A stretch of 25,223 bases of DNA. Origin: a virus. The translations under genes and the position numbers were made by a program. Location of the stretch: positions 1-25,223 of the IMG/VR virus record IMGVR_UViG_3300046642_000162; one strand, written 5' to 3'. Of this stretch, positions 4,710 through 7,060 are shown one piece after another (position 1 is the stretch's first letter; each line of letters starts with the position of its first letter). The notes under the pieces are model-generated. The model did no database searches. It saw only the letters and a program-made list of their open reading frames with translations, and was not told where the DNA came from.

Positions 4710-4749
4710 GGGAGGGTGCCCCGATGCGGTGGGGCATCCTCCCACTTTT
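4710..4749 (+). terminator. Rho-independent terminator of the replication operon
   Basis: Bases 4710-4722 (GGGAGGGTGCCCC) pair with 4731-4743 (GGGGCATCCTCCC) in a 13-bp stem with a single G-T pair and an 8-base loop. AC and then TTTT (4746-4749) follow. It lies 18 bases after the stop of the last operon gene. The right arm ends only 8 bases before the -10 box of the next gene, so terminator and promoter are fused. Confidence 0.85.
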
Positions 4750-4763: not shown

Positions 4764-5144
4764 ATGACACGCCAACCCGAAGGTAAGCTCGTCGCTGCCA
4801 CACGTCGGTATCTACAGTCGCGTGGTGCACGGGCCTTCAAGATACAAGGAGGTGCTGACTCTTTCCAAGAGATCGGTATTCCGGACATCCTCTGCTGCTA
4901 TAAGGGGAGGTTCATTGGGCTAGAGGCCAAGATGCCCGGGAACGTACCGTCCGCGAAGCAAGCCGCGGTCCTCGACGAAATCGCAGAAGCTGATGGCTAT
5001 GCCATCGTGTTCACAACGGTCGAGGAGGTATCTGGTCTGCTAGCGAAGATCGACAAGGAGGTAGCTCGTGGCTCGGTTCCTATCATTGGCGGCCATCGTC
5101 GTTACATTGGGACTAGGACCGTCAGTAGGTTCCGCAAGCGCTAG
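4764..5144 (+). CDS. VRR-NUC family nuclease
   Basis: The 126-residue product has the VRR-NUC version of the PD-(D/E)XK nuclease fold. Key features are an N-terminal helix (EGKLVAATRRYLQSRGARAFKI), then GIPDILCCYKG with the catalytic Asp, then FIGLEAKMPGN with the E-x-K pair, and a downstream Gln helix (SAKQAAVLDEI). Stand-alone VRR-NUC proteins are common in phages and act on branched or flap DNA, such as Holliday junctions, in replication or packaging. I chose ATG 4764 because an in-frame GTG further upstream (4716) lies inside the terminator stem, and because the -10 box sits just before 4764. The last ~25 codons overlap the next gene in another frame and encode a basic tail (HRRYIGTRTVSRFRKR) outside the nuclease core. 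Confidence 0.9.
   Translation: MTRQPEGKLVAATRRYLQSRGARAFKIQGGADSFQEIGIPDILCCYKGRFIGLEAKMPGNVPSAKQAAVLDEIAEADGYAIVFTTVEEVSGLLAKIDKEVARGSVPIIGGHRRYIGTRTVSRFRKR
5055..5062 (+). promoter_or_regulatory. Strong Shine-Dalgarno site deciding the GTG 5068 start
   Basis: AAGGAGGT lies five bases before GTG 5068 and inside the VRR-NUC coding region. It is the strongest ribosome-binding site on the + strand of this window. It fixes the start of the secreted protein so that a complete signal peptide is made. Confidence 0.8.
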
Positions 5145-5445
5145 CACTCAGGACTACCCCGGTGGGTATCACTTCACCTACCACTTCAAGTACCCCGGCA
5201 TCGTCCAGAACCTCTTATGTATCCACAGGTACGAGGGTGCTTGGAACGATCCCAGTGCTCCATACTATGGAGGACTGCAGATGGATCTCTCTTTTCAATC
5301 GACGTACGGCCACAAGTGGCTGCGTCATCGAGGGACAGCTGACAACTGGCCTGTGGTCGCGCAGTTACGTGCGGGGGTGAGAGCAGTCCTCAAACGAGGC
5401 TACTCACCTTGGCCGAACACGGCTCGTGATTGTGGGCTTCTGTGA
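5068..5445 (+). CDS. Secreted Rpf/lysozyme-like muramidase (transglycosylase-like)
   Basis: The 125-residue product starts with a signal peptide: R3, a hydrophobic core FLSLAAIVVTLGLG, then ASA|S with predicted cleavage after A25. The mature part has CIHRYEGAWND, then YYGGLQMDLSFQSTYG. This matches the resuscitation-promoting factor and transglycosylase-like domain of actinobacteria and their phages, with E56 as the likely catalytic acid. C51 and C122 could form the disulfide typical of exported Rpf domains. The product should act on peptidoglycan outside the membrane. It is encoded on the early strand, far from the virion lysin at 5954-7060. The first 77 bases overlap the VRR-NUC gene in a different frame; the SD at 5055-5062 supports the start. 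The role could be lysis, help with exit or entry, or acting on host walls as Rpf does; the sequence does not decide. Confidence 0.8.
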   Translation: MARFLSLAAIVVTLGLGPSVGSASASTQDYPGGYHFTYHFKYPGIVQNLLCIHRYEGAWNDPSAPYYGGLQMDLSFQSTYGHKWLRHRGTADNWPVVAQLRAGVRAVLKRGYSPWPNTARDCGLL

Positions 5446-5550: not shown

Positions 5551-5907
5551 ATGAACGAACAACGACTCCTCGTGTTCGGCGACCGCAACTGGGATAACTT
5601 CCGTGCGGTCAAGCGGGAGATCGAGCGTCGGATGCCCGGTGTAATCATCGAGGGGGAGGCTAAGGGTGCTGATACCCTAGCTCGCCTCGCCGGTGAGGAT
5701 CTGGGCATTGTGGTGCTTCAGTTCCCCGCGAAGTGGTCGGAATACGGTAGAGCCGCTGGCCCCATACGCAATCGTCAGATGTTAGACGAGGGCAAGCCAA
5801 CGGAAGCGATCGGGTTCCATGAAGATATCGCTAACTCCAAGGGTAGTAAGAACATGATGGAGCAGGCGATGAAGCGTGGGATACCCACGACTATCTACCG
5901 GAAGTAA
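5551..5907 (+). CDS. DUF2493/YpsA-type SLOG nucleotide-binding protein
   Basis: The 118-residue product matches the SLOG (Rossmann-like) DUF2493 family over its full length: LLVFGDRNWDN at the N-terminus, IIEGEAKGADTLARLAGEDLG, then FPAKWSEYGRAAGPIRNRQM, then a short acidic/Ser stretch and an AMKRGIP C-terminal helix. SLOG domains bind nucleotides or nucleotide-derived signals such as ADP-ribose forms. DUF2493 versions are frequent in actinophages with unknown function. The gene stands alone between its own -10 box and the convergent terminator. A role in nucleotide sensing, or in countering nucleotide-signal defences, is conceivable but only an inference. Confidence 0.85.
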   Translation: MNEQRLLVFGDRNWDNFRAVKREIERRMPGVIIEGEAKGADTLARLAGEDLGIVVLQFPAKWSEYGRAAGPIRNRQMLDEGKPTEAIGFHEDIANSKGSKNMMEQAMKRGIPTTIYRK

Positions 5908-5917
5908 CCTCGCTGTG

Positions 5918-5956
5918 TAGGGTGGGGAGACCAGGGGTCAGAATCTCCCCACCCTA
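5918..5956. terminator. Bidirectional terminator hairpin between convergent operons
   Basis: TAGGGTGGGGAGA (5918-5930) is perfectly complementary to TCTCCCCACCCTA (5944-5956), giving a 13-bp stem with a 13-base loop. It sits between the stops of the two convergent blocks and contains the TAG stop of the leftward lysin gene (5954-5956). The tail beyond the stem is TCTCTGTTTA on the + strand. On the - strand no T run follows, so termination in that direction is less certain. Confidence 0.75.
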
Positions 5957-7060
5957 TCTCTGTTTACCCTTCCCACCTCCCCCCGGAGGGGGTGGCAACT
6001 TATGCGTATAGCGACGAGCTGCTACGAACCCGCCCCCGAGGTAGTTCTTGAGGGGGATGAGGCTATTCACCGTCCCCGTGTGAGGCGACTCCTGAACCAT
6101 GCCGTGGCCTACGTACAATCCGACGTGATTAGGACCCGCATGACCCGGCTCAGTGAACACCGCATCCCCCGGTTGTAGTTGCTTCAGGGAGACAGGGGAA
6201 CCTTCGTTGACCTGCTCATACGTGGTGCGCCCGATCTTGACGCCCACGTCCTTGAAGACGTTCTGGAGGAAGCCAGAGCAGTCCATCCCACCCTTGCGTG
6301 ACGTGCCACCCCACTTGTAAGGCACACCGAGATACCCACGCGCGGCTTGCACGATGCCCATACCGCCACCGTGAGCTTGAATGTTCACTGAAGCGCGGGG
6401 GCTGAACTGGCGTAGAGGCGCGTTCATGGGCGTGGGGTTAGACGACTCAGATGCGAACTGCTGCCACGCATTGGGATCTGCTTCAGGCAGCTGAAGACCT
6501 GGCTGCTGTTCATCCATCGACTGTGACATGGCGGGCTGCATCTCTCCCTGCTGCGCGAGGTTCTGTGCTAGCTTCATGAAGTCGGGTCCTTGCGGTTGTG
6601 GTGCTGTGGGGGCGCTAACACCCATGCCGGCTGAGGCAGCAAGCACCGGCGGCGACTCTTGGGGAGCGGCCCCCACATGTGGAATACCACCAAGAACTTT
6701 GTGGACGTAGTCCTGAGTCTCAGCGTAGGGGGGAACGCCTCCATACTTTGCCACAGCACCTGGGCCAGCATTGTACGCTGCGAGTGCTAGGCGCCAGCTG
6801 CCGAACTTCTGCTTCTGCTCTGCGAGGTACTTCGCACCACCCATGATGTTCTCGTGCGGGTTGAGCGGATTCTCTACTCCCAGGCCCCTTGCCGTACCCG
6901 GCATGAGCTGCATCAACCCGAGTGCACCGGAGGGCGACCTCGCTCCGGGATTGCCACCTGACTCTGCCATGATCTGGCGCGAGAGTAAGCCCTCTGGTAT
7001 GCCGTACATGCGAGCAGCCCGCTTGATCGTGCCAGCGTATAGGTGTATCGCGTTAGCCAC
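5954..7060 (-). CDS. Virion lysin: lytic transglycosylase (SLT) plus NlpC/P60 peptidase
   Basis: The 368-residue product has two cell-wall domains. Residues ~1-125 are an SLT lytic transglycosylase: [14 protein letters not shown] with catalytic E33, [14 protein letters not shown], and [18 protein letters not shown]. After a Pro/Gln-rich linker, residues ~230-355 are an NlpC/P60 endopeptidase: [19 protein letters not shown] with C261, and PNHVGLYVG with H312. It can thus cut both glycan and peptide parts of peptidoglycan. The GTG start overlaps the stop of the 1063-aa internal protein by 8 bases. That position, last in the virion operon and coupled to ejection-type proteins, suggests a virion-associated lysin used at entry, though it could also serve as the endolysin. 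No holin is recognised next to it. The C-terminus is a basic Gly/Pro tail. Confidence 0.92.

What the first reader, a model, noticed from the sequence alone, without database searches (positions are those of the whole stretch)
5068..5445. Phage-encoded, exported Rpf-like muramidase separate from the virion lysin
The protein has a clear signal peptide, a candidate catalytic Glu56, the YYGGLQMD motif, and two cysteines placed for a disulfide. It is on the early strand among accessory genes while the phage already carries a bifunctional lysin in its late operon. Rpf proteins wake dormant actinobacteria, so a phage version could act on neighbouring or dormant hosts. Lysis or superinfection control are alternatives. 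The combination merits testing.
Basis: partly seen in the sequence, partly recalled or inferred. Interest (0 to 1): 0.6.

Follow-up and report, generated by a model that had tools for sequence, protein, structure and literature searches.

The report
Soil phage exported Rpf-type wall enzyme
This soil phage carries a small gene for an exported wall-cutting enzyme of the kind actinobacteria use to restart growth; unrelated soil phages keep the same gene alongside their ordinary lysis enzymes, most likely as a helper for breaking open the host, with waking or loosening slow-growing hosts as an open alternative.

Summary
ORF 5068-5445 is a real gene (strong ribosome-binding site, purifying selection) for an exported 125-aa protein with an Rpf (resuscitation-promoting factor) fold. 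A profile of its family matches only Rpf structures in the PDB (RpfB, E 3e-9), and its AlphaFold model superposes on RpfB at 1.5 Å. Glu56 sits at the end of helix 1, like RpfB Glu292. The disulfide cysteines, invariant in this family, lie one helical turn away from the Rpf positions.

About 100 IMG/VR contigs carry it, in at least seven phage lineages. 67 of 68 distinct viral copies have an N-terminal hydrophobic export segment. In five 46-48 kb relatives it sits just downstream of the same endonuclease gene, although two hold a different allele. Four of those five also have an amidase or CHAP lysin, plus the virion SLT lysin, so it is a third wall enzyme. The likely donors are Thermoleophilia, which encode a longer version.

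Closest precedent: kayvirus Tgl, a secreted, early-transcribed transglycosylase acting as an accessory endolysin. I favour an accessory secreted lysin (about 0.5). Waking or growth-modulating dormant hosts is possible but unshown. No activity was tested.

The parts
5068..5445 (+). Exported Rpf-type muralytic protein, 125 aa, GTG start
   Evidence: family alignment; profile hits only Rpf structures; fold; purifying selection
5055..5062 (+). Ribosome-binding site AAGGAGGT, 5 nt before the GTG
   Evidence: Sequence; SD-like GGAGG before the start also in three relatives
5068..5142 (+). Signal peptide (residues 1-25, predicted cleavage after A23-S24-A25)
   Evidence: Sequence; 67 of 68 distinct viral homologues have an N-terminal hydrophobic segment. 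No signal-peptide predictor was available
5233..5235 (+). Codon of Glu56, putative catalytic acid, last residue of model helix 43-56
   Evidence: Invariant; DSSP of the model; superposition endpoints 47-283 of RpfB imply Glu56 on Glu292, RpfB residue roles from PMC11978375
5218..5220 (+). Cys51, predicted disulfide partner
   Evidence: Invariant; four residues before the RpfB Cys291-equivalent position
5431..5433 (+). Cys122, predicted disulfide partner
   Evidence: Invariant; four residues after the RpfB Cys355-equivalent position
4764..5144 (+). VRR-NUC-like endonuclease gene that precedes and overlaps the Rpf-type gene (ATG 4764 is more likely than GTG 4716, which lies in a hairpin)
   Evidence: phrog_93 endonuclease E 1e-17; same neighbour in five relatives; start
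4710..4743 (+). Terminator-like hairpin before the endonuclease/Rpf unit
   Evidence: also in L003 with two paired changes
5954..7060 (-). Virion-type bifunctional lysin SLT + NlpC/P60, last gene of the structural operon, convergent with the Rpf-type gene
   Evidence: Pfam SLT E 1.6e-26, NLPC_P60 E 1.8e-22; PHROG endolysin / lytic tail / internal virion protein families
5551..5907 (+). SLOG/YspA-like gene between the two; absent at this place in the relatives, so not part of the conserved unit
   Evidence: PF10686 E 2.2e-7; no match in five relatives

Best explanation
An exported Rpf-fold peptidoglycan glycan-cutting enzyme, kept by soil phages (probably of Thermoleophilia-type actinobacteria) as an auxiliary wall enzyme. 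Made with the replication genes and sent out by the host Sec pathway, it accumulates in the wall and nicks glycan strands. It does little harm until the holin of the separate lysis cassette collapses the membrane potential; then it acts together with the peptide-cutting or amide-cutting endolysin to open the cell. Shown here: gene, export-type signal, Rpf fold, conserved active-site residues, conserved placement, and co-occurrence with other lysins. Inferred: enzymatic activity, timing, membrane-potential dependence and contribution to lysis.
For: Fold and active-site conservation. Export-type segment in 67 of 68 viral copies. Of five 46-48 kb relatives, two carry an amidase and two a CHAP lysin beside the virion SLT lysin; the fifth (G002) has only an unassigned candidate. 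19 of 23 Rpf-carrying viral records have at least one other muralytic domain above the family cut-off. In L012, L056 and L057 the gene is co-directional with a CHAP endolysin and small membrane proteins. Precedent: kayvirus Tgl, a secreted, host-RNAP-transcribed transglycosylase that lyses cells only with nisin, postulated by its authors to be a second endolysin beside LysK (PMC7150955). RpfB synergises with RipA in host wall degradation (PMC4648573), a glycan-plus-peptide pairing like the one proposed.
Against: In most lineages the gene is not in the lysis cassette: it sits among replication genes (DnaE-HU-ThyX, SNF2 helicase), beside terminase, or beside integrases. Rpf enzymes are weak hydrolases compared with endolysins (general knowledge). 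No activity, expression or lysis data exist.
Confidence: 0.5

Rival explanations
1. A phage-borne growth or resuscitation factor: exported early, it loosens the wall or releases muropeptides so that slow-growing or dormant infected cells (or their neighbours) resume wall growth and support phage production.
For: Rpf fold and likely host donors. Placement with replication genes in lineages A, B and F, and beside integrases in temperate lineages E and G, as lysogen-benefit genes often are. Four of six host rpf genes are up-regulated when phage WC1 infects Rhodococcus (PMC10986025). The peptidoglycan-hydrolase motif 3 of the TM4 tape measure protein aids infection of stationary-phase cells; the Rpf motif in Barnyard is of unclear role (PMC1796659). 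Relatives already have other lysins.
Against: No dormancy or resuscitation data. Phage copies mostly lack the ~75-residue spacer of host versions. The window copy was not shown to be expressed early.
Confidence: 0.25
2. A wall-modifying protein that alters infection of the same cell by other phages (superinfection exclusion) or helps progeny and DNA pass the wall.
For: Exported, made outside the late operon, small, recurrent in many phages.
Against: Nothing specific: no membrane-anchored architecture like known exclusion proteins in the window copy, and it is not in the virion operon.
Confidence: 0.12
3. It is simply the phage's main endolysin, secreted by Sec.
For: Muralytic fold with a signal peptide; secreted endolysins such as Lys44 are known (PMC7150955). 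The terminase side of the window genome is missing.
Against: In four of five relatives a conventional amidase or CHAP lysin is present; 19 of 23 records with the gene have another lysin domain.
Confidence: 0.08
4. Catalytically inactive wall-binding or decoy protein.
For: The profile-based sequence alignment starts after Glu56 and would put Glu56 opposite a Gly unless helix 1 is shifted by two residues.
Against: Glu56 and the substrate-cleft residues Y66, Q71, D73, W115 and P116 are invariant; the superposition endpoints put Glu56 on Glu292; dN/dS is low.
Confidence: 0.04

Closest known systems
Actinobacterial resuscitation-promoting factors RpfB/RpfC/RpfE (PF06737)
   Same: Fold (Z 10-12, 1.5-1.7 Å for RpfB, RpfC and RpfE chains), Glu at end of helix 1, cleft residues, two cysteines in the same two helical regions, export
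   Different: Disulfide moved one helical turn on both sides (C51-C122, against positions equivalent to 55 and 118); loop after Glu two residues shorter; no G5/DUF348 or Pro/Ala domains; encoded by phage
Kayvirus Tgl secreted lytic transglycosylase (PMC7150955)
   Same: Phage-encoded, signal peptide with AxA, transglycosylase (Tgl's host homologues SceD/IsaA assigned to pfam06737 in the paper), separate from the main endolysin
   Different: Tgl's similarity is to staphylococcal SceD/IsaA; it sits three genes from lysK; here the gene is Thermoleophilia-like and in window-type phages lies with replication genes, away from the conventional lysin
Rpf motif in mycobacteriophage tape measure proteins (Barnyard motif 1; related TM4 motif 3) (PMC1796659)
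   Same: Rpf-type motif carried by an actinophage; peptidoglycan hydrolysis shown for motif 3
   Different: Those are virion tail domains acting at entry; this is a free-standing exported protein made in the cell
Thermoleophilia chromosomal Rpf-type proteins (e.g. L101, L130, L149)
   Same: Same CIHxxEGxW...GGLQMD...WPxxxxxC domain, signal peptide; likely source
   Different: Host forms carry ~75 more residues between the signal and the domain (median spacer 93 vs 21)
T7 gene 3 endonuclease / gene 3.5 lysozyme arrangement (from memory)
   Same: Endonuclease gene followed by a wall enzyme inside the DNA-metabolism block
   Different: T7 lysozyme is a cytoplasmic amidase without a signal peptide; unrelated fold

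Membership tests
Rpf / PF06737 | Sequence profile match | tested here: inconclusive
   Window protein alone: no Pfam match at E<1; 6 of 8 homologues pass the PF06737 cut-off; family profile matches only Rpf chains in the PDB, best E 2.9e-9
Rpf / PF06737 | Rpf (lysozyme-like) fold | tested here: met
   AlphaFold pLDDT 82; 4emn_B Z 11.8, 1.5 Å over 76 residues; lysozymes Z 6-7.5
Rpf / PF06737 | Catalytic Glu at the end of helix 1 | tested here: met
   E56 invariant, ends helix 43-56, superposition endpoints imply E56 on Glu292; residue-level superposition was not displayed
Rpf / PF06737 | Cys next to the catalytic Glu, bonded to Cys three after the conserved Trp (Cys291-Cys355 in RpfB) | tested here: not met
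   Both cysteines are invariant but four residues away on each side: C51 and C122 (RpfB positions from PMC11978375)
Rpf / PF06737 | Hydrophobic pocket and cleft residues (I288, W297, V309, F311, I337, W352; Q310, D312, Y305, P353) | tested here: met
   Map to I52, W59, L70, M72, L100, W115; Q71, D73, Y66, P116. All invariant except I52 (at least 90%) and L100
Rpf / PF06737 | Export signal | tested here: met
   Sequence; 67 of 68 viral copies; hydrophobicity test only, no dedicated predictor
Rpf / PF06737 | Muralytic and resuscitation activity | not testable with these tools
   Needs purified protein
Secreted accessory endolysin (kayvirus Tgl type) | Signal peptide plus transglycosylase fold, beside a separate main endolysin | tested here: met
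   the separate endolysin is seen in relatives, not in the incomplete window
Secreted accessory endolysin (kayvirus Tgl type) | Early transcription; lysis only after membrane depolarisation | not testable with these tools
   No sigma-70-like promoter found near the gene; needs RNA and lysis assays
Canonical endolysin | Only or main lysin, next to a holin, no signal peptide | tested here: not met
   Signal peptide present; relatives carry amidase or CHAP lysins elsewhere

The most novel reading that the evidence does not exclude
Soil phages of dormancy-prone actinobacteria carry their own exported resuscitation factor that pushes resting host cells, or resting neighbours, back into growth so that infection can proceed; the gene moves between phage lineages and its genomic slot is refilled when lost.
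Probability: 0.15. Interest if true: 0.88.

Novelty: new variant of a known kind. Interest (0 to 1): 0.52.

Why it matters
Rpf-type enzymes are treated as host growth factors. Finding free-standing exported versions in at least seven soil phage lineages, usually alongside ordinary lysins and in a slot that is refilled by other alleles, says phages gain from an extra glycan-cutting activity outside the cell. If it aids lysis, it is a widespread two-enzyme lysis strategy in uncultured actinophages. If it acts on growth state, it gives a concrete gene with which to test how phages deal with the mostly dormant bacteria of soil. The moved disulfide also offers a structural test of how Rpf activity is tuned.

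Tried and rejected
Annotated cultured phages: no significant homologue (best E 0.6). Plasmids: only Miltoncostaea oceani. Direct Pfam, PHROG and NCBIfam scans of the window protein gave nothing useful. First idea, that this is the phage's sole endolysin in a T7-like position, was dropped after amidase and CHAP lysins were found in relatives. Host identification by major capsid protein in 299 genomes of the class of a Gaiellaceae MAG gave no match, so the host is inferred from Rpf relatives only. ERGIC-53 hits in the single-sequence PDB search vanish with the profile and are noise. G002's 162-aa protein between terminase and portal looks NlpC/CHAP-like by eye but has no Pfam match and is not counted as a lysin. 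No literature hit for phage-encoded free-standing Rpf in the held library; the library is incomplete. c-type lysozymes appear in the structure list at lower Z and are not excluded as distant kin.

Full report
OBSERVATION. It starts with GTG after a strong ribosome-binding site, AAGGAGGT, and overlaps the end of the preceding gene by 77 nt; an SD-like GGAGG is kept before the start in three relatives. Outside the overlap the gene shows dN 0.17-0.33 against dS 1.45-2.56 between the window and three relatives, so it is a real protein gene. The protein has a classical signal peptide (AxA at 23-25). The export feature is general: 67 of 68 distinct viral homologues have an N-terminal hydrophobic segment before the domain, against 68 of 684 neighbouring genes used as control.

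WHAT IT IS. On its own the protein has no Pfam or PHROG match at E<1 and only a weak RpfB match in the PDB. Ninety-nine IMG/VR stretches encode relatives. In an alignment of 39, the invariant residues include C51, H53, E56, G57, W59, Y66, GGLQMD 68-73, W94, Q99, W115, P116 and C122. Six of eight homologues tested pass the PF06737 cut-off. A profile of the alignment matches only resuscitation-promoting factor structures in the PDB, best E 2.9e-9. The AlphaFold model (pLDDT 82) matches RpfB, RpfE and RpfC best (Z 10-12, 1.5-1.7 Å for the best compact chains), with lysozymes below.

ACTIVE SITE. The superposition pairs model 47 with RpfB 283 and model 125 with RpfB 362. With helix 1 aligned without a gap, Glu56, the last residue of helix 43-56, falls on catalytic Glu292, and the loop after it is two residues shorter than in RpfB. 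This is inferred from the endpoints, because the residue-level superposition was not displayed. The published RpfB pocket and cleft residues (PMC11978375) map to I52, W59, L70, M72, L100, W115 and to Y66, Q71, D73, P116. All are invariant except I52 (at least 90%) and L100. The one departure from Rpf is the disulfide: RpfB Cys291 and Cys355 correspond to positions 55 and 118 here, whereas this family has C51 and C122, one helical turn away on both helices. It is therefore best called an Rpf-type enzyme with a moved disulfide.

WHERE IT SITS. In five relatives of 46-48 kb (G001-G005) the gene lies just downstream of the same endonuclease gene at the end of the replication block, convergent with the virion SLT lysin. 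The capsid protein is 73-93% identical across these phages while the Rpf-type protein is 56-70% identical. In a tree of 138 domains the window copy belongs to a supported all-viral clade of 18 (95/96) that spans several phage lineages but excludes the copies of G004 and G005 (L015, L064), which occupy the same slot. So the slot is kept while the allele is exchanged. The tree has few columns and many unresolved forks, so only that exclusion is used.

OTHER WALL ENZYMES. The window has the SLT+NlpC lysin 5954-7060. Among the relatives, G001 and G003 carry an Amidase_2 lysin between terminase and portal (E 2.6e-8 and 2.1e-9). G004 and G005 carry a CHAP lysin after the SLT gene (E 2.4e-9 and 2.8e-6). 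G002 has an unassigned 162-aa candidate between terminase and portal. Across 23 viral records with the gene, 19 have at least one other muralytic domain above cut-off. The Rpf-type protein is thus usually an extra enzyme. These records are classed as linear and may be incomplete.

OTHER LINEAGES. Neighbour clustering shows recurrent settings: between DNA polymerase III alpha and HU/ThyX genes (lineage B, 18 loci); with a PolA-type polymerase, CHAP endolysin and small membrane proteins in one operon (C); beside terminase and portal (D); near a serine integrase and CHAP lysin (E); near an SNF2 helicase (F); near a tyrosine integrase (G). The repeated settings argue against chance, but they do not agree on one function.

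HOST AND ORIGIN. Relatives in genome contigs are almost all Thermoleophilia or Actinomycetota MAGs, plus Saccharibacteria. 69 of 299 genomes of the class of a Gaiellaceae MAG match the profile. Host versions have a longer spacer between signal and domain (median 93 against 21 residues), so most phage copies are stripped to signal plus catalytic domain. The label viral/bacterial needs 12 changes on the tree against 46 when shuffled, with at least three forced, which suggests exchange between hosts and phages more than once. The window phage's own host was not shown directly.

MECHANISM. The nearest tested precedent is kayvirus Tgl: exported, transcribed by host polymerase, muralytic, not lytic in S. 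aureus until the membrane is depolarised by nisin, and postulated by its authors to be a second endolysin beside LysK (PMC7150955). I judge the same most likely here (0.5). The growth or resuscitation reading (0.25) is kept alive by the placement with replication and integrase genes, by host rpf induction during infection of Rhodococcus by phage WC1 (PMC10986025), and by the TM4 tape measure motif that helps infection of stationary cells (PMC1796659). Sequence alone cannot separate them. Expression timing, enzymatic activity and phenotype are all untested.

VERDICT. Observation confirmed; interpretation partly supported. It is a new variant of known kinds: Rpf-type enzymes, and phage-secreted accessory lysins.

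Noticed in passing
window 4710-4743: A 14-pair G+C-rich hairpin followed by ACTTTTGG lies before the endonuclease/Rpf unit; L003 has the same hairpin with two paired changes, which suggests a real RNA element or terminator.
   Followed up: partly
window 5551-5907: A YspA-like SLOG gene sits between the two convergent operons and is absent at this place in all five relatives; G001 has a small cysteine-rich HNH-like protein there instead, so this looks like a cargo slot.
   Followed up: partly
L082, L093, L096, L155, L157, L160: Contigs binned as Candidatus Saccharibacteria carry the same Rpf variant with shared upstream neighbours; these bacteria live on actinobacteria, so an exported wall enzyme there is worth a look (binning errors possible).
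   Followed up: no
L056:4818-5114 and equivalents in L012, L072, L078, L080: A small membrane protein, collagen-like in L056, recurs next to the Rpf-type gene.
   Followed up: no
G001-G005, terminase-portal interval and region after the SLT gene: The lysis enzyme changes type and place within one phage lineage (amidase, CHAP, unassigned), while the 125-aa N-terminal-membrane-segment gene before portal is kept.
   Followed up: partly
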